Shown piece after piece: positions 1,566-32,592 of a stretch of DNA of 32,851 nucleotides (positions are counted from its first letter, which is position 1; each line of letters begins with the position of its first letter). The stretch lies in IMG/VR virus record IMGVR_UViG_3300040801_001951, positions 1 through 32,851 of that record; one strand, 5' to 3'. This stretch comes from a virus. Position numbers and translations under genes: made by a program. Below the pieces are notes generated by a model that was not told the DNA's origin, ran no database searches, and worked only from the letters and a program-made list of their open reading frames with translations.

Positions 1566-3557
1566 TTATTTAATGAAGAAATTTAAACTAATTTTTTCTG
1601 CTACTCTAGTAGGTTCTAAAGTAATATTTACATGGAAAGTTTTAGTTTTTCTTTCATAAGCAGTAGCTCCGACATCAACATTAAAGCTATAAAGACCTCT
1701 TCTTGATTTAATATCATCAAGAAATGCTACTATTCCTCCTGATACTTGAGACCAAGTAATTTGATCATTTTGTTCAAAAATAAAGAAACGGCAATATTGT
1801 TCTAATGCGCGTTTACAATAAAGAACAAGTCTTACAATATTTAGATCTTGCAATGCACTTGGTTTAGCTTGAGAAGTCAATTGTCCCCAGTTAACATAGC
1901 CTGGATTAAACTTAACAATTGGATTCAATTGTTTTAGATACATTTGATCTCTCTGACCTAATCTTGGATTAAATCTTAACTCTTTAATTGTATCAATAGA
2001 AGCTCTATTAAAACCAGCTGCAGCAAACCAAACCTCAGATACATTATCAGTTCTTGGTAATAGATATGACATATGATATACTGGTGAGAACCATACATCT
2101 TGTCCAGTAAATGAATCATATACTTTATTATATTCTTCATATATTGCACAGAAATAATTATTAAATGTATGAACATCTGTACGTTTAGCAATTGAATTAC
2201 TATATGATGAATTATCACCATTATCCATAATTGCCACACAATCACGTCTAGTTTGAACTAATGTTGAAATACTAGTTTTAACATCGGTTGGATAACCACA
2301 ATCATATACAATTGAAAAGTATATATTTTCTTGGTCTAAAAGTTCATCAACTGAACTACTACCATCAATTTTACTAGTTAATTGACCTAGATAACCTTGA
2401 GATAATAGATTAGTTGCTCCACCAAGTCCAGATGTATTTAAATCTCCGGATGCATCTAATAAAGAACCATCAGAACCTTTCTTTAATGGAACAGGTTCAT
2501 CAAAATCAAATGCTGTTGATACTAATGTATTTGATTTTTTAATTGTATAAGTAATTTCTCCAGTAATATCAAATGCTACTGTATCACCAATCCAATTTTT
2601 AGCACCACCAGTAAGTCTACTATTATAAACTTCAATACTATCTTCTTCAACATTTATAGCACCACACCAACCATGTATTTTATTACCACGTTGGTCAGTA
2701 GCTTCTATACAATAAGTATATGGGTATGATGTAGATGCCCAGTCAACAAAATCTTGTTTTAAATCTGTTAATGATGCTGATCCATTAGATTTATTAACAG
2801 AAACAGTTCCTATTTCTTTATCATATACTTTAATCATTGTATTATAACCAGGAGACATAATTTCATCTCCATCAGTAGTCATTTCACATCTTAAAGTAGT
2901 TGAATAATTATTAAGAACATATTGGATCCAAATAGAATCCCCAGAATTATCTCTTGTATTAGGATCAAATGATATTTCAAATGATTCTATAATAGTTTCT
3001 GAGTCATCTGCTTGTTTTTCATATACATCAAGTACATAAATACCATCTAACATTGGGTTAGCATGAGCTGTTAATCTTACACTAATAGCATTATAATATT
3101 CACCTCTACCAATTGGATATAGAATACATAATGGATGACTATCTCCAGTAGAAGCTAATTTTGATCTTATTTCATAAATACTATTAATATCCACTGAATC
3201 TATATAATCTAAAGAAACAGTAGCTGTAGAATCAGTAGCTGCTAAATCTACACTAATTCTTACATTTGAATATGCTGCATTATCTGGCATACATCTGATA
3301 AAAAATAATGAACCAGACTCTCCAAGATAATTATATGCACAATACATACCTTGTCCGTATTGTTTTCCATACTCAGTTATATTAGGTTCACCATACTCAG
3401 AAATGAGTTCAGCTCTTCCTCCGATAAATTTTAAAACGTTGTCTTCACCTTTTTTGGTGAGAGCACAAATCAAACCAATAGTGCTTGGTACAGCACCAAC
3501 ATAACTACTTAAGTCAGTTATTGTAGTATATACACCTGGTGATATTGGACTTGCCAT
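1566..3557 (-). CDS. Contractile tail sheath protein (T4 gp18-like)
   Basis: A 663-residue protein, close to the 659 residues of T4 gp18. It forms the contractile outer layer of the tail. The N-terminus MASPISPGVYTTITDLSSYV has the typical sheath opening (SPGV-x-x-x-E/T-x-D), used for the inter-subunit strand exchange. The middle (about residues 100-400) is a variable insertion-rich region. The C-terminal region is the conserved part: RASIDTIKELRFNPRLGQRD, then VKFNPGYVNWGQ, a helix rich in RALEQYCRFFIFEQN, and a final SRRGLYSFNVDVG with a basic strand ending KISLNFFIK. The ATG at 3557 follows AAGGAGGAAAAATT. The gene is followed by a strong terminator. The promoter upstream is not a good match to the late consensus. 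Confidence 0.92.
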   Translation of the reverse strand: MASPISPGVYTTITDLSSYVGAVPSTIGLICALTKKGEDNVLKFIGGRAELISEYGEPNITEYGKQYGQGMYCAYNYLGESGSLFFIRCMPDNAAYSNVRISVDLAATDSTATVSLDYIDSVDINSIYEIRSKLASTGDSHPLCILYPIGRGEYYNAISVRLTAHANPMLDGIYVLDVYEKQADDSETIIESFEISFDPNTRDNSGDSIWIQYVLNNYSTTLRCEMTTDGDEIMSPGYNTMIKVYDKEIGTVSVNKSNGSASLTDLKQDFVDWASTSYPYTYCIEATDQRGNKIHGWCGAINVEEDSIEVYNSRLTGGAKNWIGDTVAFDITGEITYTIKKSNTLVSTAFDFDEPVPLKKGSDGSLLDASGDLNTSGLGGATNLLSQGYLGQLTSKIDGSSSVDELLDQENIYFSIVYDCGYPTDVKTSISTLVQTRRDCVAIMDNGDNSSYSNSIAKRTDVHTFNNYFCAIYEEYNKVYDSFTGQDVWFSPVYHMSYLLPRTDNVSEVWFAAAGFNRASIDTIKELRFNPRLGQRDQMYLKQLNPIVKFNPGYVNWGQLTSQAKPSALQDLNIVRLVLYCKRALEQYCRFFIFEQNDQITWSQVSGGIVAFLDDIKSRRGLYSFNVDVGATAYERKTKTFHVNITLEPTRVAEKISLNFFIK

Positions 3558-3676: not shown

Positions 3677-4354
3677 TTAGCAATATAAATACCAATAAAA
3701 TACTAACTGTCTAGTATCATCTTTTACAATACTAGGAAATGTAACTATACTAAATATATTAAATGGACCACCGTGCCCACCAACATTACTAGTAGATGTA
3801 TATAATCCTGCTTCATTCAAATTATATCCATTAGCATGATCTACTGATATTGTTGTCGTAATTTTTAATATTAACCAACTATCCTCATTTAAACTATCCT
3901 TTTGAAATTCTATTGTATCAAAAGGGTGTTTATAATACTGTCCACTCCTAAGATCAGCACAACTTGAATCTGATGCATGAAAAGGAATTTCATTTGATAA
4001 ACTATCTAAATCATTTGTAGGTGTGGCTGGAGCTAATGGAGCACTAGTTGGAGCTCCACCATTTCCTAATCCAAACCAACTTATAAATTCAGACGGAACT
4101 TGGTTAATATCATCATTTATTTTGTTACATAATCTAGAAGCTATCCACTCTCGACCTTTATAGAGAACTAAGTTACTTTTACCAACTTTTTGTTTTTTTC
4201 CATGTTCGTCAATAGAATAGATTTCAACAAATCCTTTTGGCTTTCTAGATTTAGCATTCACATTATTCACTGCATCATTAATGCACGAGTCACCATAATT
4301 TTCATCTATACTGACAACTATAGTTTCTGGCTCTTTGATCTTTTTATCTTCCAT
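3677..4354 (-). CDS. Putative virion structural protein
   Basis: A 225-residue protein of unrecognised family. It starts at the ATG at 4354 with AAAGGAG 7 nt upstream. Residues 1-35 are charged and probably flexible. From about residue 40, FVEIYSIDEHGKKQKVGKSN leads into NLVLYKGREWIASRLC, then WFGLGNGGAP near residue 95, and later GYNLNEAGLYTS near residue 180. The combination of a strand-rich start, a G-x-G-x-G loop and an NEAGLY-type motif resembles small phage tail or baseplate-associated proteins that share a fold with fibre-attachment modules, but I cannot name the family. It has a late-type promoter upstream and sits between the TIGR cassette and the tail sheath gene. Confidence 0.75.
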   Translation of the reverse strand: MEDKKIKEPETIVVSIDENYGDSCINDAVNNVNAKSRKPKGFVEIYSIDEHGKKQKVGKSNLVLYKGREWIASRLCNKINDDINQVPSEFISWFGLGNGGAPTSAPLAPATPTNDLDSLSNEIPFHASDSSCADLRSGQYYKHPFDTIEFQKDSLNEDSWLILKITTTISVDHANGYNLNEAGLYTSTSNVGGHGGPFNIFSIVTFPSIVKDDTRQLVFYWYLYC

Positions 4355-4399: not shown

Positions 4400-4491
4400 A
4401 TTTTTTCATGTGATTGGTGGTAATTATAGAAATAAGGTTCTATATATATAAATAACTAATATAATATAATTGTAAATTTTAATTTTAAAGG
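4400..4491 (+). promoter_or_regulatory. Candidate promoter region of the TIGR array and tas gene
   Basis: A very AT-rich plus-strand segment before the first array repeat. It contains TATAAATA at 4447-4454 (the T4 late promoter core) but without the AGAACA box seen at the minus-strand promoters, and two overlapping TATAAT hexamers at 4460-4465 and 4465-4470 without a clear -35. The start site cannot be decided by eye. A perfect ribosome-binding sequence (AAGGAGGT) straddles its end and the first repeat but has no nearby ATG. Confidence 0.35.
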
Positions 4492-4752
4492 AGGTCACCA
4501 CCTTAGTTGAGAAACCCACTACCTATAGTTTATCACACCAATAAAGAATCCCACAGTTGAAAAGTTTACCAAAGTATACAAGAAACCCATATACAAAGAG
4601 TTTACCAATTCTGATTTAGAAACCCAAAACTATTAAGTTTACCATACTCGCTTAGAAACCCAAAGGAATGTAGTTTACCATACTTCTTAAGAAACCCAGA
4701 AGTACAAAGTTTACCAATATATTATAGTAGCCCAAATAATCCAAGTTAACTT
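4492..4752 (+). repeat. TIGR array 1 (7 units, upstream of tas)
   Basis: Two different 9-nt repeats alternate, separated by unique spacers. The type-1 repeat AGAAACCCA starts at 4510, 4545 (AGAATCCCA), 4581, 4618, 4654, 4690 and 4726 (AGTAGCCCA). The type-2 repeat AGTTTACCA starts at 4492 (degenerate AGGTCACCA), 4527 (AGTTTATCA), 4563, 4599, 4636, 4672, 4708 and 4744 (degenerate AGTTAACTT). Spacers are 9 nt except 4519-4526 (8 nt) and 4608-4617 (10 nt), so the period is 35-37 and mostly 36 nt. This is the layout of tandem interspaced guide RNA arrays, whose 36-nt products carry two spacers each. The array starts and ends with a degenerate type-2 repeat, so type 2 is inferred to be the edge repeat and type 1 the internal (loop) repeat. 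It ends 18 nt before the tas start codon, so array and gene probably share a transcript. Confidence 0.93.
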
Positions 4753-4770
4753 AAAAAAAAGGATGTTACA

Positions 4771-5838
4771 ATGACAATTACCAAAAAAGAAAAAGCAGCA
4801 GCAGAGAAAGCAGAAAGACTTGACCTTATTAATAAGATGAGAGTTATGACAAGAAGACCATCTTATACATTTCTTAAATCTCAAGATAAAACATTCTATG
4901 GCATTCAAAAATTGAGAATCCAGACTGGAAATAGAATAACAACAGGTTTGATGAAACAACTTGGTCTACCTGTTGGAGTATCAAAAGAAAAAGGACTTAG
5001 TACACTATCCCAAGAACTTTTGATTGAAGCTGTAAAAGATTATAAATTCCTTGCAGATTATGTTGTTGTAAATAAAACAACATTAATCAAAGCTATAAAA
5101 GATAATAGCATTCTTGTTGGTTCAGTGCCTGAATATAATCTGGTTGAAAATTATGTATCTCTTTTAGAAGAAGAAGCAAAAACCAAAAAGGTGATTGCTG
5201 GTTATTTAGAAACATTTCCAATTTGGTCCCAATATCTAAAACATATTGATGGTGTTGGTCCTTTGATGGGAGCAGTCATCATATCAGGGTTTGATATTAC
5301 CAAATGTACATATGTTTCTTCAATGTGGGCATATGCTGGTTATGATGTGGTTGGCACTATAGATGAAGAATCAGGCGAAATGAAAATGGAAGGAAGGTCC
5401 AGACAAGTAAGGCATCTTGTAGAAAGAGAATATTTAGATGCACAAGGAAAACTTTGTACGAAAAGAGGGGTATCATATAACCCAGCCATGAGAACAAAGA
5501 TGTTTGTGCTTTCTGGATCTATTTTGAAAGCATATGGGAAAAAACCTAATAAGTATGGTGATATTTATTATAATGCTAAATTGAAATATCAGAATAGACG
5601 GCAAATTGCTTTACTTAAAGAAATGAGATCTTCTGGGCTGACTGAAGCAAAAGCTGCAAAGGTCGTTGATAAATATTGGAATAAAACCCATATTCACCTT
5701 ATGGCTGTAAGGATTCAAATGAAAACTTTCCTTCAAGATCTTTATCCTGTGTGGAGAGGGTTGGAAGGATTGGAAGTTGTTCCGCCTTATCATGAAAGAG
5801 TTCTTGAAAGACCACATCATGAAAAAATAGAAGCTTAA
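4771..5838 (+). CDS. tas: TIGR-associated (Tas) protein, nuclease-less, Nop/IS110-like
   Basis: A 355-residue protein inferred to bind the 36-nt guide RNAs from the flanking arrays and direct them to DNA. The N-terminus (1-30) is Lys/Glu/Ala-rich. Residues about 80-155 are helical and charged. Residues 157-192 hold the diagnostic core HIDGVGPLMGAVIISGFD followed by SSMWAYAGYDVV, the helix-hairpin-helix element shared by IS110-family transposases (Transposase_20) and Nop-type proteins. Residues 235-275 (SYNPAMRTKMFVLSGSIL, then a Lys/Tyr-rich stretch) and 304-333 (KTHIHLMAVRIQMKTFLQDL) give the conserved C-terminal helices. I see no HNH, no RuvC and no N-terminal DEDD domain as in IS110, so this corresponds to the nuclease-free Tas class, expected to bind rather than cut. 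The ATG at 4771 has AAGGA 7 nt upstream. It is the only plus-strand gene in the window. The identification rests on the array architecture plus the HhH core; a structure prediction would settle the Nop fold. Confidence 0.88.
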   Translation: MTITKKEKAAAEKAERLDLINKMRVMTRRPSYTFLKSQDKTFYGIQKLRIQTGNRITTGLMKQLGLPVGVSKEKGLSTLSQELLIEAVKDYKFLADYVVVNKTTLIKAIKDNSILVGSVPEYNLVENYVSLLEEEAKTKKVIAGYLETFPIWSQYLKHIDGVGPLMGAVIISGFDITKCTYVSSMWAYAGYDVVGTIDEESGEMKMEGRSRQVRHLVEREYLDAQGKLCTKRGVSYNPAMRTKMFVLSGSILKAYGKKPNKYGDIYYNAKLKYQNRRQIALLKEMRSSGLTEAKAAKVVDKYWNKTHIHLMAVRIQMKTFLQDLYPVWRGLEGLEVVPPYHERVLERPHHEKIEA

Positions 5839-5844
5839 TATTTT

Positions 5845-5877
5845 AAATAGCAGGGATCTAATAAGTCCCTGCTATTT
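5845..5877 (+). terminator. Hairpin between tas and TIGR array 2
   Basis: Perfect 12-bp stem (5845-5856 with 5866-5877, AAATAGCAGGGA/TCCCTGCTATTT) with a 9-nt loop, 6 nt after the tas stop codon. It is followed by only ACCATTTTAATTA, so the U-tract is poor and termination may be partial. The end of its 3' arm is also the start of array 2 (degenerate repeat TATTTACCA at 5873-5881). It lacks the TTCCG tail of the minus-strand terminators. It could be a terminator, an attenuator or a processing barrier. Confidence 0.6.
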
Positions 5878-6458
5878 ACCATTTTAATTAAGAAACCCAT
5901 CGTATCTTAGTTTACCATGCGTAACAAGAAACCCATAATAAATTAGTTTACCAATCTGTCACAGAAACCCATAGAAGAGAAGTTTACCACCACCTTCTAG
6001 AAACCCAATACTGACCAGTTTACCACCACCTCTCAGAAACCCAATACTTTCGAGTTTACCAATTGAAGGCAGAAACCCAAAATAAGTAAGTTTACCATTA
6101 AAATGCAGAAACCCAACTTAAAACAGTTTACCAGCCTCATAAAGAAACCCAAGAGGACGTAGTTTACCATTTGTGCGGAGAAACCCAAAAAAAGCAAGTT
6201 TACCAACATATCAAAGAAATCCAGAGGTGTATAGTTTACCAGTTACCAATAGAAAACCATTGCAGGCAAGTTTACCATCTTCATGAAAGAAACCCATAAC
6301 AAAGTAGTTTACCATTAAAATGCAGAAACCCAAAGTAGCGAAGTTTACCATTATAACGAAGAAACCCAACTTATAACAGTTTATCAATCATCGGTAGAAA
6401 TCCATCGGAACAAAGTTTACCACGTTCAGCTAGAAACCCAGGACAAAAAAGTTAACGG
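5873..6458 (+). repeat. TIGR array 2 (16 units, downstream of tas)
   Basis: Same two-repeat architecture as array 1. AGAAACCCA-type repeats start at 5891, 5927, 5963, 5999, 6035, 6071, 6107, 6143, 6179, 6215, 6251, 6288, 6324, 6360, 6396 and 6432 (variants AGAAATCCA at 6215 and 6396, AGAAAACCA at 6251). AGTTTACCA-type repeats alternate 18 nt later (5909, 5945 and so on), with a degenerate first copy TATTTACCA at 5873, AGTTTATCA at 6378 and a degenerate last copy AGTTAACGG at 6450. All spacers are 9 nt except 6278-6287 (10 nt), giving a strict 36-nt period. The spacer TTAAAATGC occurs twice (6098-6106 and 6315-6323). No cas1/cas2 genes or palindromic 25-40-nt repeats are present, so this is not CRISPR. 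The last repeat overlaps the end of the minus-strand terminator of the convergent gene. Confidence 0.93.
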
Positions 6459-6496
6459 AAAATGTGGGACTCAGCTATTACTAGTGAGTCCCACAT
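6457..6496 (-). terminator. Intrinsic terminator after the zinc-ribbon protein gene
   Basis: Perfect 12-bp stem (6462-6473 with 6485-6496, ATGTGGGACTCA/TGAGTCCCACAT). On the minus strand it is followed by TTTTCCGTT. It also separates the convergent TIGR array from the structural genes and could stop plus-strand transcripts leaving array 2. Confidence 0.8.
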
Positions 6497-6521
6497 AGTC
6501 CATCTTTTTTTTGTTTATTTT

Positions 6522-7316
6522 TTATGCTTGTAAATTAGTACCACACTCCGAACAATAATTAGTTCCATAATGTGACTTAGTTCCACAAGTAGGACATTCT
6601 TTTTTTGTCGATACAAATACAGGAGTCTTTACAGGCTCGTCTATTTTATCAGTACCTTTAAGTCTAATGATAACTACTCCATGATCTTCAATAGTACCAA
6701 CATGAGTTGTATTAAAATCTTGTTTTAATTCAGAACCAGGAACTGTAATACCTTCTTCAGCTTGAGGTGCTTCACTTGGTCCCATCCAATCCATAGTAAC
6801 TGAACTTTCAACATTTGCTTGAGCTGTTGGTTCTGATTGTCCTGTAATACCTCTAGCAGTTGGACCTTCATTTAATACACCACCATACTTAACATCAGTT
6901 TGACTATAGAAAGATCTATACACTGTTGGATATGTATGAGTAGTTGTCCATGAATAATCTATAGTTCTTTCAAACCCATATTTAACACGAATAAAACCAT
7001 CATCTACTTTATCACCTCGATGATCTTGAATCTTTTTCGTTTTTTGAATAAATTTAAAAGCATTCTTAACTGCATTATTAACCATGACACCTTTTAATTC
7101 CATGTCATCATTAGCATCAATAACAAGTCTTCTTCCATCCAATACATCTGAACCATCAATAGAAACTTCCGCTACTGCTCGTCTATTATCAAGGTTCTTT
7201 AATAGGATAGAATATTCTGACCCAAAAGGAAGGATGACATCATTGTCAGTTGATACTTCTCTAAGAATTTTACCATTACATTTGATTACCACTACGAACT
7301 TATTGCTATATACCAT
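6522..7316 (-). CDS. Putative structural protein with C-terminal zinc ribbon
   Basis: A 264-residue protein starting at the ATG at 7316 (AGGAG about 6 nt upstream). Residues 1-75 form a strand-rich domain (FVVVIKCNGKILRE, later LPFGSEYSILLKNLDNRRA and VSIDGSDVLDGRRLVI) that looks like a small beta-sandwich of the kind found on virion surfaces. Residues about 90-180 contain KFIQKTKKIQDHRG, GFIRVKYGFE and a stretch rich in Thr, Gly and Glu. The C-terminus carries two CxxC knuckles, CPTCGTKSHYGTNYCSECG, a classical zinc ribbon. The gene has a late-type promoter at 7377-7396 and a strong terminator, so it is probably expressed with the tail genes. Head or tail decoration is the best guess; DNA or RNA binding by the ribbon is possible. 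Confidence 0.8.
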   Translation of the reverse strand: MVYSNKFVVVIKCNGKILREVSTDNDVILPFGSEYSILLKNLDNRRAVAEVSIDGSDVLDGRRLVIDANDDMELKGVMVNNAVKNAFKFIQKTKKIQDHRGDKVDDGFIRVKYGFERTIDYSWTTTHTYPTVYRSFYSQTDVKYGGVLNEGPTARGITGQSEPTAQANVESSVTMDWMGPSEAPQAEEGITVPGSELKQDFNTTHVGTIEDHGVVIIRLKGTDKIDEPVKTPVFVSTKKECPTCGTKSHYGTNYCSECGTNLQA

Positions 7317-7405: not shown

Positions 7406-10400
7406 TTAAACGACTGTTAGATCAGCATCAAACTCACTTGTTGTTGTAGATGTACTATCCAATGTATCATTGCTTATATCTATTGTTGTATCATAAACAT
7501 TAGTAGTTAATACATCTGTTCCTATTAATATTTCATCATCTCCAGTCAATACTAATCCTGTTGATAATGTTGTGATACCAATTGTACTAGTCAATTCTTC
7601 ATTGTCTCCAGTTACTAAATCAGCATTAATATCACTAATTGAATTAGCTGAACCAATAATAACCATACTAATATCTATAATAGAATCAATGTTAATAGTT
7701 GAATTAGATGAACCAATAATAGCCATACCAATATCTAAACTATAAGCATATATAAATATTATCTTAGATTCAGAAGTTCCTGATAATTCTATATTTTCGC
7801 CAGTGAATACTAAATCAGAACTAATAATATCAGTAGTTATATCTATTGTACTTGTTAACAAGTCACTTCCAGGTACCAGGATATAAGAACTAACATCAGT
7901 AGTTATATTTATAGGTCCTGCTAACTCTTCATTTACACCAGGAACCTCTAACTCAGGTGTGGTAGTATCAGTAGTTATTGTTATTGTGCTTGATAATTCT
8001 TCATTTTCACCAGATACTAAAGGAAAAGCACTAGCATTAGTAATAATATTTGAAGTTGCGTTTATAACAAGATCATTTATTAATGTTGCATCTGATGATA
8101 CAATTACTTCAGACATACCAATTAATATTTCATTTTCACCCAATACTAACATTGAAGTTGATGTTGTTGTAATACCAATTATACTAGTTAATTCTTCATT
8201 ATCTCCAGTTACTAAATCAGCATTTACATCTGTAGAATTATTAACAACTCCGGTCAATTCTTCAATATTTCCAGTTACTAAATCAGCATTTACATTTGTA
8301 TAATTATCAACAACACCTGTTAATATTTCATTATCTCCAGTAAATATTAGTCCTGTTGATAATGTTGTAATACCAACTACACCAGTTAATTCTTCATTAT
8401 CACCTCTGTCTATAACAGCACTTACATTTGATATAACATTAGTAATTGAATTTAATACATATTCAACACCTAAAATAGATATTATATCAGTAGTAATATT
8501 AGATGATCCAGTTAATATTTCATTTATACCAATGTATAGTTCTGGTAATGATACCACAGAAGTTACATTAATAGGACTTGTTAAGTCTTCATTGTCACCT
8601 ATAACCAATGTTGCAACTGATACATTAGTTGTTACATTTATTCTGGTATTAGCTAATGCTACAGGAACACCCATAGTTATATTAGAATCAACTGAAGTAA
8701 TAACATTAGTAGTTGATGATAATATTTCTTCTTCACCAGATAATAATGTAGATGCTATTACATTGGATATAATATCAATGTTAGATGATAATTCTTCATT
8801 GTCACCAGTAACTAATTCTGAAGTTACTAAATTAATAATTTCTACTGAACCTGTTAATTCTTCATCAACACCAGTATCTATTACACTTATTAAAATATCT
8901 ATTACACTATTTGAACTACCTGATAATATTTCATTATATCCAACAATTAATGAACCATCAACTGCAGTATAAATATTAGAAACACTACTATTAATTTCCT
9001 CAATACCAAAACTTAATAATGGTGTAACATCACTAATGATTATACAATTAGCTTCTAATACAGAGTTTCTAATTTCAATTTCACCATAAACATTACTTGA
9101 TTCTATTGATGTTCCTTCTAATATTTCAGATGTACCAATAATTAAAATATCAGACACAATAGAACTAGATGTAGAATTACCAGTTAATATAATATCATTT
9201 TGATTTAATGTACTATCAATATTAGAATCAATAGTTATATTACTACTTAATTCTTCATTACCACCTGTAACAAGAATACCATTAGAAATACTATCAATAG
9301 TTGATGTTCCTGAAATTATTGTTAGAACACCCATATCTAATGCAGCAGTAAATGTAGAATCAACTACTGAAGTTCCACTTAATGTTTCATTTACTCCAGT
9401 TGATAATAAATCTACTGTTACATCTGTATTTGTTATAATTATACTACTTAATAATTCAACAATACCAATAGTGACAATTCCTTCTACATTAGAAATTATA
9501 TTAACAAATCCATCAAAAGATACATCAGCTCCAAGAGATAAATCTGCTGTGACTAATGTAATAGTAGAATTAGAACTACTAAGTATTTCTGAATCACCAA
9601 GTATTAAATTTCCACCTAATACATAAGAAATTATATCAATAGAACTACTCAAGGAATCAGTAGAACCAAGAGTTAATTCAGAATAAATATTTGACTCAAC
9701 AAAATGATTTAAATATGAATTTGTCCATATAACATCATTTGTATCTATAAATTTAGTATCAATTTCATAATAAGTGCTGGATAATAATATAGTAGGAACA
9801 CTTAAAATAACTTCAACGTCAGAATCTACTTCACAATAAGCTTCTAATGAATGTTCTGTACCAATACTTAAAATAGTATCAACATTAGTATTAGAATTAA
9901 CAGTTATAGATGATGATAATTCTTCTATAACACCAACAGATAGATCAGAATCATTAACATAAGAAATTATAGTAGAATTTCCTGATACTAAGTCAACACC
10001 TAAATCAACATTATTAACATAAGAACTTATATTAACTGATCCACTATAAGTACCAAGTATAACTGATTGAGGATCTTCTTCATTTACTGGAGTATGTTCA
10101 TTTATACTACCATTGTATACTAATACTCCATTAGAAACTGGATTACCATATACCTTATCTGATATTATATCATTACTAAAGTAAATTTTAATGTTTCTAA
10201 TACCTTTGTCTGTATCAGTTCCACTCTGGTGATAATTATGGAATAATATTTCATCTATACCAATACCAACTCCAACATTACAAATAATTCTTTGGTTTGT
10301 TGTTTTCTCATTAGCTAACCAATTTTGAGGAGATCCAGTTAAATCAATTGAATTATAAAATAATCTCCAAGGTGCATAAGAACCTGATGGTAATGTTGTT

Positions 10401-13195
10401 GTGGCATAAGCACTAAAATCAACATTTGGAACTCCAATATCAACTATATTACCAAAGTTAGAAAATCTTATACCCATTAATCCCATGTTGACTGGGTCAC
10501 CATGGTTATTTTCTACATCAATTACAATACTTCTTGTAATATATACTGAACTAACAACAAGTAAGTCAGAAGATGAATTAGAAGTAATATTTGAAGTAGA
10601 TTCTAAATATTCTTCAAAACCCATTCTCATTTCACTAACTGTATATATAACACTAGCAACAGCACTACTTAATAATTTAACTATACCAGTAGATAATAAT
10701 GTATCTACTTCTGTAGTAACGGAAGAAACACCACTTAATGATTCAATGTCGCCTTGAGTTAATTCAGTATCATATATATTTGATTTTACTATTAATGTAC
10801 CAGTTAATTTTTCTTTAGTAGTACCAGTACTCATAATAGCAGTAGTTACATTTGTTGCCAATATAAAAGCTGATAAAGCTACTGGTAGTCCAACAATTTC
10901 TAGGTCAACTTCTATTGCACTAACAACATTAATACTTGATGTTAATACCTCACTTCTACCAAAATCTATTCCTATTGTTTCTACAACTGAAGATTGAATG
11001 GTAACGGTAGATGATAAATATTCAATTATTCTACCATCACCAACAACATCTAAATTAGTTATTCCATCAAAAGTATTACCTGAATCAAATATTGATGGGT
11101 ATTTACCAACTGTTGTTGTTACTGTTGCTCTAGCATTGGAGGTGATCCAAATTTCAAATACATCTCTAACAGGAGATGATGTTACTAATGTATCATAACT
11201 ATTTCCAACATCCATCCTCATAGGAGGTTCTAGTCCAAAATTATCAGACATAGTCTGCATAATTTCATGGTTAAATCCATCATCATCAACAGTAACAACA
11301 TCGTCACGGTTTTGCTCAGGATCAACATCCATTGTATCATACCAAGCATGTTCAGTTCCTGAATCAAAAAATGAACCAGTATCCCAATTTTGATTATAGT
11401 GATTAGTTCTACCAATTCTATCATGAAAGAACATACCTATCTCAATCATCCAAGAATCACATATACCACCACCTGGATGATGCTTCAATGCTTCTAGAAA
11501 ACATTTTTGAAGAATAGGAAGAATATCATAATATCCACCACTATCATAACTAAAATTTAGATATTCAGGAGGCATAGGAACATCATAACGTCTACAGGCA
11601 TCATATAACCATTCTAAGTTATCACATAGTACTGGAGGGAATGGGTCTTTAGCACCAGGAATTTCTGGAATACGAGGTGGATCATCAAAAAATCTTCCTG
11701 TATCCCATTGCCAAGTCAAACTCATTAATGTTTCTAGATCAATTTCTGCCTGAGTTTTATTACAAGGAAAACTAGGTGGTCTAATACTGTCATGATAATA
11801 ACTGCCTATCTGTGTTAGCATCCATTCATCTAACATTACAGATTCAGTTAATGGATTTTTAAATGAGAAAGCTGTATCCATAAAAGCTAATCTAGCTCTA
11901 TATGGTTTAAAGAAATTTAATATTTCATATAATTCTTTTCTAAACCCAAGCCCTAACATTGTTATAACTAAACTCGGAGACTTGGAGTCTACATTTAATC
12001 TAATCCAATTATCTAATGTACCTATCATATATGTTATTAAATAAGATTCATCTCCAGTATCAAACCAAGAGTCAATAGTTTCTTTGAACTCTGGATTCAT
12101 TGCATCTAATAATGATTCAGCAGAACCTATTGAATTTAGAAAGTTTTGACTCATAGGTCTTGACCAATCATCAACTATAGATTGGATTCTAGCAGTTCTA
12201 TCATCTCTTGATATTGGTCTTGAAATTAATTCTTCATATATTTCTGTTATATTTGATAAATCAAGAGGTACAGGAGGATCACCTTGATAATCAATAACAC
12301 CATCATAACAACCATATCTAGTAAAAGTACTTATAATACCATCTCCAAACAATCTTTGAAAAGTATAACAAGTAGCAACAAAAACATGTAAAATAGGAAG
12401 AAGAACTCCTAAATTCTTTACGGCAGTATTTTCAGGTAATTCCAAACCCAACATGAATCTATCATATTGATCTTCAACAACTCTAAATAAAATAGATAAA
12501 GAAATTGTAATATTATATAAAGCAAAAATAGAACTTAAAGAATAATATGGACTTTTAGATGGTAAACTTATTTTATTTGTTTGAATCAAGGATTCAATAC
12601 TACCTGCAGTCTGTATCCAATGAGGATCTGATCCAGTCATTTTTTCAAAAGGAACATCTGTTTCTAATAATAAAGTACTACCGGATGCAGCTAACCTTAC
12701 TGACTCACCTCTAAAAACAAGATTGTTATATTGATCTTTTTGTAACCAATATTCAATTAAATCAGTATCAGAAAAACCATAGTAATCTAATACATCAACC
12801 AGAGTTTCAGGAGTACCTTTTTTCTTATAAAAATTTACTAAGTCTAAAAAGAAATTAGCTTTAGTTGTCAATGGTACTAAATTTAATCCATGTTCGAAAC
12901 CAAAACTTCTGAAAAGCTCACTTAATTGATTGTTAGGCATCTGATGGATATCAGATGAATGTCTTTGAGTTGTGGCTATTGTTCTATGAGAAGTATACCA
13001 ATCAATTATCATTTGGCGCAATCTTTTCATATCATTGGTAGTCATCGTATTTTGATCAATTATTTGCTCAAAGTATTTAGTTACTAATTCCTTTTCTGAT
13101 GTCGCTAAGGTGGTAGTCAATTCACTAAGGTTTGGATCAGTAGTCCCATCCTTTAGGTAATGCATTATTCTCCAAAGATCATCAATTGTAAACAC
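7406..13195 (-). CDS. Giant baseplate-like/repeat-fibre fusion protein
   Basis: A 1929-residue protein. The start is a GTG at 13195 with AAAGGAG 7 nt upstream. Residues 1 to about 720 are non-repetitive, largely helical and unlike the rest; near residue 110-135 the segment DLVNFYKKKGTPETLVDVLD followed by YYGF resembles the K-K-G-T-P-x-x-L helix of tail protein I/baseplate components. From about residue 725 the protein becomes an array of roughly 22-residue Ser/Thr-rich repeats with a G-x-x-E-x-L-[ST]-[SG] core (for example GDNEELTSTIGITT). About residues 900-1042 the array is interrupted by a module (MGIRFSNFGN, then PWRLFYNSIDLTG and IRNIKIYFSND) that looks like a galactose-binding-like beta-sandwich. 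The likely role is anchoring a long fibre to the baseplate. A degenerate late promoter overlaps the 3' end of the preceding gene. Confidence 0.8.
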   Translation of the reverse strand: MFTIDDLWRIMHYLKDGTTDPNLSELTTTLATSEKELVTKYFEQIIDQNTMTTNDMKRLRQMIIDWYTSHRTIATTQRHSSDIHQMPNNQLSELFRSFGFEHGLNLVPLTTKANFFLDLVNFYKKKGTPETLVDVLDYYGFSDTDLIEYWLQKDQYNNLVFRGESVRLAASGSTLLLETDVPFEKMTGSDPHWIQTAGSIESLIQTNKISLPSKSPYYSLSSIFALYNITISLSILFRVVEDQYDRFMLGLELPENTAVKNLGVLLPILHVFVATCYTFQRLFGDGIISTFTRYGCYDGVIDYQGDPPVPLDLSNITEIYEELISRPISRDDRTARIQSIVDDWSRPMSQNFLNSIGSAESLLDAMNPEFKETIDSWFDTGDESYLITYMIGTLDNWIRLNVDSKSPSLVITMLGLGFRKELYEILNFFKPYRARLAFMDTAFSFKNPLTESVMLDEWMLTQIGSYYHDSIRPPSFPCNKTQAEIDLETLMSLTWQWDTGRFFDDPPRIPEIPGAKDPFPPVLCDNLEWLYDACRRYDVPMPPEYLNFSYDSGGYYDILPILQKCFLEALKHHPGGGICDSWMIEIGMFFHDRIGRTNHYNQNWDTGSFFDSGTEHAWYDTMDVDPEQNRDDVVTVDDDGFNHEIMQTMSDNFGLEPPMRMDVGNSYDTLVTSSPVRDVFEIWITSNARATVTTTVGKYPSIFDSGNTFDGITNLDVVGDGRIIEYLSSTVTIQSSVVETIGIDFGRSEVLTSSINVVSAIEVDLEIVGLPVALSAFILATNVTTAIMSTGTTKEKLTGTLIVKSNIYDTELTQGDIESLSGVSSVTTEVDTLLSTGIVKLLSSAVASVIYTVSEMRMGFEEYLESTSNITSNSSSDLLVVSSVYITRSIVIDVENNHGDPVNMGLMGIRFSNFGNIVDIGVPNVDFSAYATTTLPSGSYAPWRLFYNSIDLTGSPQNWLANEKTTNQRIICNVGVGIGIDEILFHNYHQSGTDTDKGIRNIKIYFSNDIISDKVYGNPVSNGVLVYNGSINEHTPVNEEDPQSVILGTYSGSVNISSYVNNVDLGVDLVSGNSTIISYVNDSDLSVGVIEELSSSITVNSNTNVDTILSIGTEHSLEAYCEVDSDVEVILSVPTILLSSTYYEIDTKFIDTNDVIWTNSYLNHFVESNIYSELTLGSTDSLSSSIDIISYVLGGNLILGDSEILSSSNSTITLVTADLSLGADVSFDGFVNIISNVEGIVTIGIVELLSSIIITNTDVTVDLLSTGVNETLSGTSVVDSTFTAALDMGVLTIISGTSTIDSISNGILVTGGNEELSSNITIDSNIDSTLNQNDIILTGNSTSSSIVSDILIIGTSEILEGTSIESSNVYGEIEIRNSVLEANCIIISDVTPLLSFGIEEINSSVSNIYTAVDGSLIVGYNEILSGSSNSVIDILISVIDTGVDEELTGSVEIINLVTSELVTGDNEELSSNIDIISNVIASTLLSGEEEILSSTTNVITSVDSNITMGVPVALANTRINVTTNVSVATLVIGDNEDLTSPINVTSVVSLPELYIGINEILTGSSNITTDIISILGVEYVLNSITNVISNVSAVIDRGDNEELTGVVGITTLSTGLIFTGDNEILTGVVDNYTNVNADLVTGNIEELTGVVNNSTDVNADLVTGDNEELTSIIGITTTSTSMLVLGENEILIGMSEVIVSSDATLINDLVINATSNIITNASAFPLVSGENEELSSTITITTDTTTPELEVPGVNEELAGPINITTDVSSYILVPGSDLLTSTIDITTDIISSDLVFTGENIELSGTSESKIIFIYAYSLDIGMAIIGSSNSTINIDSIIDISMVIIGSANSISDINADLVTGDNEELTSTIGITTLSTGLVLTGDDEILIGTDVLTTNVYDTTIDISNDTLDSTSTTTSEFDADLTVV
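7440..11010 (-). repeat. 22-residue (about 66-bp) coding repeats, fibre 1
   Basis: Coding repeats covering the C-terminal two thirds of the 1929-residue protein, excluding the inserted module at about 10070-10490. Units are diverged but keep G-x-x-E-x-L followed by Ser/Thr pairs. Low codon diversity makes the DNA rich in recurring words such as those for GDNEEL. Confidence 0.75.
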
Positions 13196-13223: not shown

Positions 13224-13242
13224 TAATTTATATTATGTTCCT
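13224..13242 (-). promoter_or_regulatory. Late promoter motif overlapping the end of the 13233-20699 gene
   Basis: Minus strand reads GGAACA-TAA-TATAAATT; it keeps the 3-bp spacing, with one change in the AGAACA box. The box itself encodes the last codons (Gly-Thr-stop) of the upstream fibre gene, so promoter and coding sequence overlap. Confidence 0.55.
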
Positions 13243-16200
13243 TTATTTGATACATGTTCAAAGATATTTTGAGTTAAATATGTTTCATAGCATGTTTCTA
13301 ATGATTTTAACTTTCTAGTAAAAATTGCCTCGTTATCATATTTGCTATAATCGCCATTAATCTTCAATTCTAAGTATATATAAATCATTTTAGCTAATGA
13401 AGTATCTAAAATATCATAGTCAATACCAATTAGTGTAGCATTTTCAGGTTCCAATCTATATACTAATAATCTATCCATCATAATTATATCATGTGATTGA
13501 ATATTATATACATTTATATTATATTCATTTGGATCATCACCATCCGCTATATAATAATGAGCAGTATCTGGATCTAACATCATTCTTTGTTTAATAGCAG
13601 CTGGCCATGATGTTTTATCTAACACTTCTCTATACATATATCTATAAGTTGTTTTATCATAGTTATCATTAAATAATAATTCTATAAATGATCCTTCATA
13701 TATATTACCTGCAGAAGGAAATGTTATCTGATGTTTATTTAATGATTTATGATTCACAACAAAATAGTCGTACCAATATTGTAAATCAGCAGTAATCTTT
13801 CTTCTAAGAAGATCTTGAGTATTTATATCTAATTCAGTTTCAATTTTACTAATGGTAGATAAATTAATACTAGCTTCTAATACTTCATTAACAATACCCA
13901 TAGATAATTCAGTAGCAACAACAACTCTTACATATGAATTAGCAGATAAAATTTCATCTTCACCTAAGTACATTGGGTCTATAGTAGATACAGTTCTAAT
14001 AACAACTGTACTTGATAATGAATTATCAAGATGACCCATTGTTATAGCAACATCTGGTATAGATGATTGAATAACTATATTAGCTATATGTTCAATTTCT
14101 AACCATAATGTATCAGAATTAGATTCAACCCAAGGAGCGGTTGTAGCTGATAATACTTCTACTAAACCAATAATTAAATCAGATGATGTAGTAGTTTGAA
14201 CAATATTAACTGAACTTGCTAATGGATTAGCAATACCTAAATTCAAGAATGTATCAGACTTAGTTTTAATATCAACAGAACTTGTTAATACTTCAACAAT
14301 TCCCCAACAATATAAATCATAAATATTTATACTAAAAATAACTGAACCTGATAAATGCTCTGCATAACCAACATTTATACTACAAGAAGCTTTAGTACTA
14401 AATGAAACATTCCCAATTAATGGCTCAAGTTTTCCAGTAATATACTCTGCATTAGTAGATGTTCTAATCAAACTAGTTGCAGATAAAGGTTCTTGTGAAC
14501 CAACAATTATACCAACTTGAGGTATATTTGAGGTATACACTGTATGTCCAACAATAGCAATACCTATATAAAGATCATCATCTAAACCAGTATAAGAAGT
14601 AATTAGACCGGTTGCTGATAGTATCTCAGTGGTTCCTAATAAGAAATGACCACTTGATGATGACTCTGCTAATGTTGTTGCAGTAAGACCTGTATCAGTA
14701 CCAAGAATCATCTCAGCATCAGTAATTGAAATGGAGAATATACTACTTGATAATAGATCAGTTCCACCAAGTAATACATTCAATGGAGCAAGTGATGTTT
14801 GAATTTGAACTGTAGCTGATAATTCTTCTATAACACCTTTCATTAAATATGGAGTTATAAATAATGAATTAGCATGTACTTGAGAATTTAATTGTGAATT
14901 ATCACCAATAAATAAATCAGCTTCACCAACTAAACTTTGAATATCAACATCTGATCTTATTCCGTATTCTACTCCTGTATAAATAAATCCATCAACAAAA
15001 GATTCAATAAAAATATTTGAATTTAATGGTTCTGTTGTACCTAATTCTAATTCACTATCATTTACATTTGTATCTATAATAGCAGAATGTTCTAATGGAG
15101 TTACACCACCAACGCTTAAGTCAACAATAATATTTGATGAAATTAAAGAAATGGCTGACATAATACTACCAACGCTTAAGTTGGCATCAGCAGTGGTTGT
15201 TATTGCATAATCTACATTTAAATCAATGGCACCAATTACAAGACCGTCACAATTAACGACTGACTGTCCATAAGATGACCCACTTTCAAAGTGTTCTGCA
15301 ACACCTAATGTTAGAGTGCCCCAAATTTCAGTTTCAGAATATGATTTACCTCTAAAATTACTAAGTATTAGAACTGAATTTGATAATGATATTACATTTC
15401 CAGTTGATGTTAATGGAGTAGCAACACCAAGAGTAAGTATATTTTCTACATCAGTAGTTATTTTAACAATAGATGTTAAGCTATCTGCTGCACCTAATAA
15501 TAAGATAGAATCTGCAACATCAGATTGAATAATAGAAGTTGATGTTATACCTGTTACAGTACTTACAAGTGGTATAAATGATTCAACATTAATAGTTGAT
15601 GAAACAAATACAGGTTCTCCAATAAATAAATCAGATTTAACATCAGTAGAAATTGTAGTTGTACCTACTAATACTTCTATATTGAATATACTTAGATCTG
15701 CAAATGAAGTAGATGTTGAACTAACACTACTTGTGTATTCTCCTATTAATATTTTAAGATCACTAACATTACTATCAACAAAAACAGTTGTATCTAACCA
15801 TTGCATATTAATTGGTGATAAGGCATCAATTGTACTATAAACATCAATAGATGATGATAAGTACTCATTAATACCTAATGTTAATTCAGATATAGTATCA
15901 AGAACACTAACAGTAGTAGTACTTAATAGTTCAACAATACCCGGAACTACATTGGCAGTAACAATTACTTCAACTAAACAATTGGCTGAAAGTGCAGCAA
16001 ATATATCAACTACATCAGGAATATTACTTACTACTGATATAGTAGAACTCATCTCAGTAACATTTCCAGTTATAAGAGAAGAAACAGTTAATGATTCTAT
16101 AACAGAGGATGATGATAACTCTTCTAAAACACCAGTAGATATAGCAGAGACTTCTGTATAAGAATTAGTATATACAGTACCAACTAAACTAACGTCATTA

Positions 16201-19200
16201 ATTAATTCAGCATCAACAGTACTTCCTATTAAAATAGAAGCTACTAAGTTTTCTGCGCCACCTAACATAAGGACTGGACCAACTGAAGTTTCAACGTGTG
16301 TAATCGCAGTTAATGTTTCAGAATTACCTGCAAGTAATGATGAATCTATAGACGAAACAACATTAATTGCACTTGTAAGACCAATGTAAGAATCAAAAGT
16401 TGCTATACTTAATACATAAGCAGTTCCTTCTAATACTTCTAATGTGCCTGGGATTTGTAGAAATCCCTTAGTTTTAGTAGTTGAATGAATAGTGCTTGAT
16501 AATGGTTGTACATCACCAAGGAATAATTCAGCATCTGTTATTGAAATAGACAGAGTAGTTGATGATAAAACATCAAGAGCGCCAAATATTAATTCAGATC
16601 CATTAGCATCAGTACTTGAAAAACAAAAAGAACATTGTAAATCTTCACTAACACCTAATTCTAATGTAGTATTTAATACTACAGCACTAACAATATTGTT
16701 GGTTGCATTAAGTATTTCATTTTCGCCTTGAGTCATAAAACTTCCGGTTATGGAAATTAATGAAATAGTTGAACCTAATAACTCAACAATACCAACACTT
16801 AATTCTGGTTCAATACTACTAATTGTTGTAGAGGAACCACTTAATATCTCATTGAAATTTTTCATAAATACATTAGATTGAATTAAAATAGTAGATTCTA
16901 ATTCTTCTAATGCACCTGGCACATATAACCATGTTCCAGTAACTTTAGATGTAATTTTTATTGTTGGACTAAACTCTTCTCTTTGACCCCATATTAAATC
17001 AGCATCTTCAACTAAATGAGTAAATGTAATACTGCTTGATAATTCTTCATAAATACCAAGATCTAATACATCAGCTACATTAGGTTGAGCTACAGCTGTA
17101 CCAGTCATTGACTCAGCAGCACCAAGAGTTAAAATAGCTGGAGGTGAACTTAATGTTGAAGCAATAGATGATGAAAATAATTCATCTATACCTATAATTA
17201 AAGGACCATCATTAGTATAACTTTGTATAAATATTGAACTTGATAATGGTTCATCAACTCCAAATGATATTACAGCATCTGCAACTGAATTAGAAAAATT
17301 AGAAGAAGCTAATAACTCTGATACACCAATAACTAAAATAGCAGTATCAGTAACAAATGAAGTAATCAATTCAGATGATGACACAGGAGTGTCTATACCC
17401 ATTGTGATATCAGCAGTAGATAATGATTCAATTATACTTGTATGTGATAAAGGTTCATCAACACCTAATGTAATATCTGCATCTGTTATTGATATAGAAA
17501 AATTTGATGTAGCAAGTAATTCTGCTTTACCAATAGTTAATAAAGATTCATCATAAGATACAATACTAATAGAAGCTGATAATGGAGTATTAGCACCTAA
17601 TTCTAATTCAGCATTAACAATAGATTGAATTAAATAAGATGCTTCTAATGGTTCATCAACACCTAATGTTAAATCACCAGGTAGATTTGATTGTGTAGTA
17701 GAAGAAGCAGCAACTACCTCTAATATACCCAAACCTAATACTGATGTAATATAAGATTGGACATTAGATGATGAAGTTAATAATTCAACCACACCTATTT
17801 CAAGATTTGGTAAACTAACATTAGTTGTAATATCAACAGGAGTTGATAACTGCTCTACAAGTCCTAAATACACATTACTTAGTATAGATGTAGTTATATC
17901 AAGAGTAGCAGTTAATTTAGCAGCAACACCAAGAGTTATAAATACTTCAACATTACTTTCAACAACACAACTAGTTACTAATGATTCATCTCGACCAATA
18001 AATAAATCAAGATCAACATGTGATGTAGTTGCTATAGTAGACGCTAACAACTCTAAGACACCTATTACCATATCAGCATTAACATCACTGACTATATCAA
18101 TAGATGAAGTTAATTCTTCTGAAACACCTAAAGTTAAAACTCCAGTTATTGTTCCACCATCTGTTGTTGCTACAGATAAACCAGTTAATTCCTCACTCCT
18201 ACCAAGAGTTAAGTCTGTTGTTGTAATTGACTGAGAAATAGAAGATGATCCTAATACCTCTATCTTTCCAGTAGTTAATAAACCATCAACCTGAGAACTT
18301 CCTAAGAAATAATAAGTTGATTCTAATGGTTCACCAACACCAAGAATCAATTCAGAAAATGAAACATTAGTTTGAATTGGGTTATGATGCTCTAATATTT
18401 CATTAATACCAAGAGTTAATTCACTATAACTTCCACCCTTTCTAATAAAACTTACTACATCAACAGTAGCTGAAATTAATTCAACTGCACCTTCAATTAT
18501 AAATCCACTAACAAGAGATTCATAACTAATAGATGCTGATAGAGATTCAACAACACCCATATTCAATTCAGCTTCAGTTATTGAAACACTAAATGATGAA
18601 GATGCTAATATCTCTAATACTCCAGTTATTAAAAGACCACTAGAAGCAGTACTAATACTTGTTACTGTTGATAATAATACTTCAACAACACCAAGAACTA
18701 GTTCAGATTCAATTACACTAACAATAGCAATCGATCCTGATAATTCTTCTGATAATCCAGTAGTTATAATAACTGTAACATTTGATTGAACTAATGTAGT
18801 TGAACTTAATTCCTCACCAAAACCAATAGTTAATTCAGATATAGAAGAAGTTGATATAACATTAGATGTTGCTTTTACCTTTTCTGCAACACCAAGAGTT
18901 AATATACCACCAACATTAGAAATAGGATCAGTTGACCCTGAAACTAATTCAACAACACCCATGAACAAGTCAGCGTCTGCTACAGAATTTGTAAACACAG
19001 TTGTTGCTAAAAATTCAACAACACCAAGAGATAATAAAGAATTTGAAGTAGTAGATATAACTGATTGTGTAGAACTTAATCCCTCAGAACCTCCAGTAAT
19101 TAATACTGCATATATATTTGATTTAGCAGTAGCAGTAGCAGATTGTATTTCACTAGAACCAACATACATATCTGAATCAGTTATTGATATAGAGAAAATA

Positions 19201-31797: not shown

Positions 31798-32592
31798 TTA
31801 AATTAATTCAAGTAATTGCTTTTCTAATTCTTTAAAAACTTTAATACTCTTAGCAGTTGATGGTAACTGAATATCTAAAGAGTTAATCTCTATTAAATTT
31901 TTACATCTATCTATAACTATTTTTTTTCTTTTATGAGCTAATTTTTGAGCTTCACTATTTTTCTTTCTAGCATTAGGATCTTTAAAATATTCTTTCAATC
32001 GTTTACTATTTGCTTTTCTATTCTCTGGTTTTCTTCTAGTCTCATGCGTTTTAGCTATAGTATCTGCATATTCTTCGGGAAATTCTTTCATGTAATCTAG
32101 TTGAGCTTTTCTATATTTATTTCTTACTTCAGGTAGTTGTTTAATTTTTGTTGCATTTTTTTGATAAGACTTATGTTCTATTGGGTGAGTTAAAACATAA
32201 TTTTTAATTGAATCACTTAATTTTTTTAATGATTCCTCAGCACAATTTCTTGGACCGCCACCATCAGTTAGATTAGTTAGTATTCCAGTTTTTAAATCAA
32301 TCCTACCATAATATAATATTAAAAATTTTTCAACTTCCAATGCAATTTCATCTGTTTTATAAAATCCATAAATTTTATAGTTTAATCTTTTGTTAGATTT
32401 TATAATCCCTCTGATTATACTCAATTTTAAATTTTTATTATCTGTGTTAATAGCTTCAGCTAAATGAAGTTGAAATCTATAATCTTGACCTTTACCTATA
32501 TAAAATGGTTTGCCTGATGGTGATATTATACCATATACATAATGTTTATATTCATTTTTTCTTATTAATGATTTAGCTTCACTTATTTTCAT
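31798..32592 (-). CDS. GIY-YIG homing endonuclease (free-standing)
   Basis: A 264-residue protein. Residues about 17-35 (YVYGIISPSGKPFYIGKGQD) hold a variant GIY-YIG motif (VYG then FYIGKG), the LEM-3-like form, followed by the Arg (DYRFQLHL) expected in the catalytic helix. Residues 110-215 contain basic segments with a recurring N-x-x-x-x-x-E/K pattern (TRRKPENRKANSKRLKEYF; DPNARKKNSEAQKLAH), like the DNA-binding NUMOD-type minor-groove modules of phage homing endonucleases. Such enzymes cut at one locus to copy their own gene between phages. It sits between structural genes rather than inside an intron, like T4 seg genes. The ATG at 32592 lies just after the upstream terminator tract, with only GAGAGGG as a possible ribosome binding site. 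Confidence 0.85.
   Translation of the reverse strand: MKISEAKSLIRKNEYKHYVYGIISPSGKPFYIGKGQDYRFQLHLAEAINTDNKNLKLSIIRGIIKSNKRLNYKIYGFYKTDEIALEVEKFLILYYGRIDLKTGILTNLTDGGGPRNCAEESLKKLSDSIKNYVLTHPIEHKSYQKNATKIKQLPEVRNKYRKAQLDYMKEFPEEYADTIAKTHETRRKPENRKANSKRLKEYFKDPNARKKNSEAQKLAHKRKKIVIDRCKNLIEINSLDIQLPSTAKSIKVFKELEKQLLELI

What the first reader, a model, noticed from the sequence alone, without database searches (positions are those of the whole stretch)
4492..6458. Complete TIGR-Tas RNA-guided system inside a phage tail gene cluster, with arrays on both sides of tas
Seen: 23 units of 9-nt repeat/9-nt spacer/9-nt repeat/9-nt spacer with a 36-nt period, flanking one gene whose product has the IS110/Nop-like HhH core. 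Known: TIGR-Tas systems (described 2025, from phages and parasitic bacteria) combine a Nop-domain Tas protein with arrays processed to 36-nt RNAs carrying two spacers. The period matches exactly. Two separate arrays around a single tas gene, one long and one short, is a noteworthy arrangement.
Basis: partly seen in the sequence, partly recalled or inferred. Interest (0 to 1): 0.95.

Follow-up and report, generated by a model that had tools for sequence, protein, structure and literature searches.

The report
TIGR-TasA RNA-guided cassette in phage
A giant-phage fragment carries a genuine TIGR-Tas system, a recently described RNA-guided DNA-binding machine. This copy lacks the DNA-cutting part, and it sits behind what looks like the phage's own early-gene switch in a slot where related phages keep other genes.

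Summary
Window 4492-6458 holds two TIGR dual-repeat arrays (7 and 16 units, 36-nt period) around one 355-aa gene. Its product passes the NCBIfam TIGR-Tas cut-off (125 versus 100 bits), and its predicted fold is closest to solved TasH and TasR (Z 16-18). It has no nuclease domain, so it is TasA-type. Arrays on both sides of tas are already described and recur in at least three relatives. It is therefore a new member of a known kind.

What I add is context. Kin phages (72-99% identical tail sheath) put different cargo, or nothing, between the same two flanking genes. Kin genomes encode two sets of multisubunit RNA polymerase, as phiKZ/AR9-type jumbo phages do. The cassette lies between a promoter motif shared by kin, resembling AR9's early promoter, and a shared terminator, so it is probably one early operon. 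A distantly collinear jumbo-phage contig carries a giant, partly degenerate array with the same repeats but no tas. No spacer target was found above chance in the window, in other TIGR contigs or in kin phages. Its biological role remains open.

The parts
4440..4455 (+). Early-type phage promoter motif CTATATATATAAATAA, in cargo direction
   Evidence: Motif CTATATATAT[TA]AATAA occurs 44 times on one strand and 0 on the other in 80 kin loci (778 kb); 40 of 44 are followed by an RBS and an ORF within 160 nt; 0 in a Markov control of 40 loci. Close to the AR9 early consensus AAATATATATTAT-6N-G (PMC5312081). Promoter activity is inferred.
4492..4752 (+). Upstream TIGR array, 7 units, from a 5'-truncated edge repeat (AGGTCACCA) to a 3'-truncated edge repeat (AGTTAAC)
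4771..5838 (+). tasA, 355 aa, Nop-domain Tas protein without a nuclease domain
   Evidence: NCBIfam NF052498, 125 bits; phmmer to 9mty and 21kl; AF2 pLDDT 78.6; Z 17.6 TasH, 16.7 TasR
5844..5878 (+). 14-bp perfect hairpin between tas and the downstream array; its 3' arm contains the truncated first edge repeat
   Evidence: -20 kcal/mol, z -5.4; role unknown
5873..6458 (+). Downstream TIGR array, 16 units, ending in truncated edge AGTTAAC
6462..6512 (.). Intrinsic terminator hairpin plus T-run, at a place conserved in kin phages with any cargo or none; probably bidirectional
   Evidence: -32.8 kcal/mol, z -6.4
3677..4354 (-). Flanking virion structural gene (225 aa), one border of the cargo slot
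   Evidence: PHROG 19418; 56-100% identical in kin
6522..7316 (-). Flanking gene (264 aa, C-terminal zinc ribbon), other border of the cargo slot
   Evidence: 41-81% identical in kin; PHROG 16351 weak
1566..3557 (-). Contractile tail sheath, used to place the phage
   Evidence: PHROG 19666 1.7e-66; best-covered cultured matches are nearly all >200-kb phages such as PBS1, AR9, phiR1-37

Best explanation
This is a TIGR-TasA cassette carried as accessory cargo by a jumbo phage of the phiKZ/AR9 type. Steps supported by sequence: promoter motif, 7-unit array, tasA, 16-unit array and terminator form one unit on one strand; the protein is a Nop-domain Tas without a nuclease; the repeats keep the box C/D and edge-pairing grammar of tigRNAs. 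Inferred from the published family: early in infection the unit is transcribed as one RNA and cut within the edge repeats into 23 guide RNAs of about 36 nt (5'-UACCA-spacer A-AGAAACCCA-spacer B-AGUU-3'). A TasA dimer binds one guide, pairs spacer A with one DNA strand and spacer B with the adjacent stretch of the other strand, and sharply bends the DNA. Because there is no nuclease, the effect should be blocking (transcription or replication), not cutting. The most likely use is against competing mobile elements or the host, but no target was found and the role is open.
For: Arrays. Tas identity: NCBIfam above cut-off, PDB matches, fold. No nuclease: residue 29 of the model aligns with TasR 110 and TasH 65, so the whole N-terminal nuclease region is absent, and no nuclease profile is found. 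Edge pairing: U3-A6 in 23/23 units and G2-C7 or G2-U7 in 23/23. In 1158 units from all loci, pairs 2-7 and 3-6 form in 98% and 96%, against 89% and 85% when shuffled between units, with C-G/U-A and G-C/A-U exchange. 36-nt arrays accompany tas in 84 of 101 sequences examined. Cargo slot: same flanks in kin, with other cargo, near-empty or empty. Early-type promoter. Kin genomes encode two beta and two beta-prime RNA polymerase sets.
Against: No transcript data, so early expression, co-transcription and 36-nt processing are inferred. The centre of the edge repeat is UU here, where relatives have mostly GA, so the unknown processing nuclease might act differently. The hairpin at 5844-5878 could separate the downstream array from tas. 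No spacer target was found above chance. In the window itself the promoter rests on one 16-nt motif with one deviation from the commonest form.
Confidence: 0.86

Rival explanations
1. An IS110-family transposase gene next to an unrelated tandem repeat.
For: Weak Pfam match to Transposase_20 (E 0.077, below cut-off); PHROG 4285 is labelled 'transposase'; fold similarity to IS621 and ISCro4 (Z 11.6-11.9).
Against: No N-terminal DEDD/RuvC domain, because the protein starts where the coiled coil begins. TasH/TasR rank well above IS110. NCBIfam TIGR-Tas is over its cut-off. Relatives carry dual-repeat arrays.
Confidence: 0.02
2. An active RNA-guided nuclease (TasH or TasR type) that cuts target DNA.
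For: The NCBIfam model is named 'RNA-guided endonuclease'.
Against: The 28 N-terminal residues before the Nop/coiled-coil region cannot hold an HNH or RuvC domain; the corresponding residues of TasR (1-109) and TasH (1-64) have no counterpart.
Confidence: 0.04
3. The cassette regulates the phage's own genes or DNA rather than foreign DNA.
For: The paper allows regulatory roles for TasA (PMC12045711). The cassette lies behind a promoter of early type. The window holds only part of the genome (kin contigs reach 207 kb).
Against: No A + rc(B) site above chance in the 32.8-kb record, in kin jumbo contigs, or, for other TIGR systems, in the contigs of the phages that carry them.
Confidence: 0.2
4. 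A decaying relic: arrays and tas are no longer used.
For: A few repeats are degenerate (in units U1, U7, D10, D11). In the distant relative G001 a giant array of the same repeats is strongly degenerate and has no tas on the contig.
Against: The tas frame is open over 355 codons. 37 of the repeats are exact, spacing is nearly perfect, edge pairing is kept in 23/23 units, and promoter motif and terminator are in place.
Confidence: 0.05

Closest known systems
TIGR-TasA systems (Faure et al. 2025, PMC12045711; for example Flavonifractor plautii FpTIGR)
   Same: Solo Nop-domain Tas protein; dual-repeat array with 9-nt spacers and 36-nt period; arrays upstream and/or downstream; truncated edges at the array ends; terminator; phage origin.
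   Different: Edge repeat AGTTTACCA (U3-A6 pair, UU centre) instead of the AGCGAGYCA/AACGAGTCA common in the relatives found here. 25-40% protein identity to the aligned relatives. Probably in a phiKZ/AR9-type jumbo phage behind an early-type promoter; the paper's main text does not mention jumbo phages.
TIGR-TasH (Salicola phage CGphi29) and TIGR-TasR (PDB 9mty)
   Same: Same Nop/coiled-coil fold (Z 17.6 and 16.7) and same guide grammar.
   Different: Those carry an N-terminal HNH or RuvC nuclease; this protein does not. TasR repeats start with UG, these with AG.
Microcystis phage Mvi-JY20, ORF at 21367-22092 of PP438412
   Same: Cultured-phage tas relative (25.7% identity over 66%) followed at once by a 36-nt dual-repeat array that is not annotated.
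   Different: Shorter protein (about 240-250 aa), different repeats, different genome place.
IS110 family (IS621, ISCro4)
   Same: Shared Nop-like RNA-binding fold (Z 11.6-11.9).
   Different: Recombinase with a DEDD domain and one bridge RNA; no array.

Membership tests
TIGR-Tas | Nop-domain Tas protein | tested here: met
   NCBIfam NF052498 125 bits versus cut-off 100, E 4e-36; fold Z 16-18 to TasH/TasR
TIGR-Tas | Array of two alternating 8-12-nt repeats with about 9-nt spacers, several units, beside tas | tested here: met
   23 units, two 9-nt repeats, 36-nt period, about 20 nt before the tas start and 34 nt after its stop
TIGR-Tas | Truncated edge repeats at both array ends, followed by a terminator | tested here: met
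   ...CACCA and ...TTTACCA starts; AGTTAAC at both ends; terminator after the second array
TIGR-Tas | Box C/D motifs shared by edge and loop repeats; edge half-repeats able to pair, with covariation | tested here: met
   AG...CCA in both repeats; 2-7 and 3-6 pairs kept in 23/23 units; covariation across 1158 units
TIGR-Tas | Array processed to 36-nt tigRNAs bound by Tas | not testable with these tools
   needs RNA sequencing or pull-down
TIGR-Tas | Two spacers guide binding to opposite strands of DNA | not testable with these tools
   no natural target found; needs a binding assay
TIGR-TasA subtype | Nop domain alone, no HNH or RuvC nuclease | tested here: met
   alignment begins at TasR 110 / TasH 65; no nuclease profile
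TIGR-TasH / TasR | N-terminal HNH or RuvC nuclease | tested here: not met
IS110 transposase | N-terminal DEDD/RuvC domain plus single bridge RNA | tested here: not met
   domain absent; RNA locus is a 23-unit array; Pfam Transposase_20 below cut-off
phiKZ/AR9-type jumbo phage (for the carrier) | Two sets of multisubunit RNA polymerase | tested here: inconclusive
   present in kin contigs G017 and G022; the window is a 32.8-kb fragment without these genes

The most novel reading that the evidence does not exclude
Jumbo phages of the phiKZ/AR9 type carry their own TIGR subtype (edge AGTTTACCA), expressed from a virion-polymerase early promoter, as a non-cutting RNA-guided silencer that acts on host or rival DNA from the first minutes of infection. 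In kin phages the same slot is a swap site for other accessory genes.
Probability: 0.35. Interest if true: 0.75.

Novelty: new member of a known kind. Interest (0 to 1): 0.5.

Why it matters
What TIGR-TasA systems do in nature is unknown; the discovery paper says so. This case gives testable context: a probable jumbo-phage carrier, a likely early promoter, kin phages without the cassette at the same site, and two arrays in one likely operon. If early expression is confirmed, the target is to be sought among things present at the start of infection (host genes, host defence, resident elements, co-infecting phages) rather than in virion assembly, despite the place in a tail gene cluster.

Tried and rejected
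Self-targeting: A + 0-2 nt + rc(B) sites in the window, and in the contigs of nine other array-carrying phages for their own arrays, do not exceed re-paired spacers. Cross-targeting: 759 distinct units against 1.39 Mb of TIGR-phage sequence, 8 hits at 17/18 or better versus 8-10 in nulls. Window units against 1.45 Mb of kin jumbo-phage DNA: no excess. Exact target of unit D8 in all IMG/VR: four contigs, which are two independent phages with 47-53% G+C, about what I estimate chance gives. Complementarity of spacers A and B inside units: p = 0.008 in the window but not consistent over 35 loci (Stouffer z 1.4) and without a fixed register, so not claimed. Close relatives of the window protein in IMG/VR with single-sequence patterns: none; the alignment search gave 153 matches, at 33-43% identity in those listed. 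No structural match outside the Nop/IS110/Tas families stood out.

Full report
Observation. The window is itself a whole IMG/VR record of 32,851 bases, probably a fragment. At 4492-6458 two dual-repeat arrays flank one ORF, 4771-5838 on the + strand. Parsing gives 7 upstream and 16 downstream units. The 9-mers AGTTTACCA and AGAAACCCA occur 19 and 18 times exactly, all inside the arrays and nowhere else in the window. A generic detector (AG....[CT]CA every 18 nt) finds these arrays and none in 40 shuffled sequences.

Which repeat is which. Both arrays begin with a 5'-truncated repeat ending in ACCA (AGGTCACCA, TATTTACCA) and end with AGTTAAC. In published TIGR arrays the truncated repeats at the ends are edge repeats (PMC12045711). 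So AGTTTACCA is the edge repeat and the A-rich AGAAACCCA the loop repeat; an A-rich loop repeat is also what the paper describes for TasR. Five nt (UACCA), spacer A (9), loop (9), spacer B (9) and four nt (AGUU) sum to 36. The exact cut point is inferred.

The protein. NCBIfam NF052498 (TIGR-Tas) matches at 125 bits over a cut-off of 100. phmmer finds TasR 9mty (3.4e-12) and TasH 21kl (2.4e-5) among solved structures. tblastn in cultured phages finds the known SpTasH of Salicola phage CGphi29 and an unannotated relative in Microcystis phage Mvi-JY20. An AlphaFold2 model from an 11-sequence alignment (pLDDT 78.6) aligns best to TasH (Z 17.6) and TasR (16.7), then IS621/ISCro4 (11.6-11.9), then Prp31/Nop5 (about 7). 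Foldseek gives the same order. The alignment starts at TasR residue 110 and TasH residue 65, so the nuclease part is missing: it is TasA-type. The NCBIfam name 'endonuclease' should not be carried over.

Relatives. An alignment search of IMG/VR found 153 relatives, 80 kept, and 8 in bacterial and archaeal genome assemblies. Dual-repeat arrays were found in 84 of 101 sequences examined. Arrays on both sides of tas occur also in G007 (tas runs across the contig ends), L085 and L105, and the paper states 'upstream and/or downstream'; the two-array layout is therefore ordinary. G014 has a second array about 18 kb from tas.

Repeat grammar. In the published structure the half edge repeats at the two ends of a guide pair with each other. 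Over 1158 units here, the 2-7 pair forms in 98% and the 3-6 pair in 96% of units, against 89% and 85% after shuffling between units. G-C, G-U and A-U occur at 2-7; C-G and U-A at 3-6. The window keeps G2-C7 or G2-U7 and U3-A6 in all 23 units, but with a UU centre where relatives mostly have GA.

The carrier. The tail sheath (1566-3557) is closest in cultured phages, by coverage, to that of phages mostly of 250-275 kb such as PBS1, AR9 and phiR1-37. In IMG/VR 80 kin loci were kept, 59-99% identical. Kin contigs of 207 and 186 kb encode two RNA polymerase beta proteins each, and one or two beta-prime matches, the mark of phiKZ/AR9-type jumbo phages. That the window belongs to such a phage is inferred from these kin.

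The slot. In the closest kin loci the two genes that flank the cassette (225 aa and 264 aa) are present, but the DNA between them differs. It is 145 bp in L159 (empty) and 284 bp in L167 (near-empty). Elsewhere it holds AbiEi-like winged-helix proteins (L157, L158, L162), a protein with weak DUF6551 or ParB-like matches beside one of them (L158, L165), or a helicase set with a radical SAM protein (L160). The main cargo ORFs run opposite to the tail genes. The terminator next to the 264-aa gene is at the same place in nearly all kin, with changed but paired stem sequence. No kin record of this set carries a detectable tas, although those records are fragments.

The promoter. Upstream of the cargo, kin share CTATATATATTAATAA. 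It occurs 44 times on the cargo strand and never on the tail-gene strand in 778 kb; 40 of 44 are followed by a ribosome-binding site and an ORF; a Markov control of 40 loci gave 0. The window has it at 4440 with one deviation. AR9's early promoter is AAATATATATTAT-6N-G, and phiKZ-related virion polymerases use extended AT-rich promoters (PMC5312081). In kin the cargo ORF starts after the following AAGGAG; in the window the first truncated edge repeat overlaps that very sequence (AAAGGAGGTCACCA). So the upstream array probably begins near the start of the transcript, and promoter, array, tas, array and terminator form one unit. Early timing and co-transcription are inferred.

A giant relative. 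Contigs G001 and G002 (identical over the shared part compared) carry arrays with the same two repeats over about 5.4 kb: 166 linked repeats at up to two mismatches, against a mean of 2 and a maximum of 8 in shuffles. The array is partly degenerate and interrupted by a 193-aa ORF, and no tas is found on the contig. G001 is distantly collinear with the 207-kb kin phage, including its polymerase region. Jumbo phages may thus hold their own TIGR subtype.

Spacer dynamics. Some units in the window look like diverged duplicates: spacer A of D7 and D13 is identical; D7 and D14, and D4 and D5, share parts of both spacers. More near-identical spacer pairs than expected occur in several larger arrays. 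Near-identical phages in other groups differ by single internal units (L136 versus L138/L143/L144). This suggests growth by internal duplication and loss rather than by addition at one end only, but was not tested further.

Targets. None were found above chance in the window, in the other TIGR phages or in kin jumbo phages. One exact 18-nt match type in IMG/VR is at the level I expect by chance. The function against any particular DNA therefore stays open.

Verdict. A complete, probably working TIGR-TasA cassette: a new member of a known kind, with a context (probable jumbo phage, early-type promoter, swap site) that makes the open question of TasA function more testable.

Noticed in passing
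L010 / G001:C1:20500-26000 (minus strand); L011 identical: Giant, partly degenerate TIGR array (166 linked repeats) with the window's repeat types, on a 62-kb jumbo-phage contig without tas; published arrays mostly have 5-15 units.
   Followed up: partly
G014:C1:53580-54954 (tas at 34345-35397): A second TIGR array of about 38 units lies about 18 kb from the tas gene and its adjacent array; G007 also has a remote array at 72.5 kb.
   Followed up: no
L002 4640-4950 (PP438412.1, Microcystis phage Mvi-JY20): Unannotated 36-nt dual-repeat array directly after a hypothetical protein that is a tas relative, in a cultured phage; a convenient laboratory system.
   Followed up: partly
window 5844-5878: Perfect 14-bp hairpin between tas and the downstream array that takes in the truncated first edge repeat; role unknown.
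   Followed up: no
window units U3, U6, U7, D7, D14: Spacers A and B of the same unit are partly complementary or alike more often than re-paired spacers (p = 0.008 in the window), not seen consistently elsewhere.
   Followed up: partly
window 7406-13195, 13233-20699, 20737-26037: Three very long proteins (1929, 2488, 1766 aa) built of many short degenerate repeats (about 25-30 aa, '...LGxxExLSSTxxxxS...') in the tail cluster.
   Followed up: no
window 31798-32592: ORF with matches to phage homing endonuclease families (PHROG 314, 1.9e-6) at the end of the record.
   Followed up: no
L157-L167, L205 between the 264-aa and 225-aa genes: Swap site in jumbo phages with varied cargo: AbiEi-like winged-helix proteins, weakly DUF6551/ParB-like proteins, a helicase set with a radical SAM protein, or nothing.
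   Followed up: partly
L136 versus L138/L143/L144; L099 versus L100: Near-identical phages whose TIGR arrays differ by one internal unit or in detected length; useful for studying how arrays grow and shrink.
   Followed up: no
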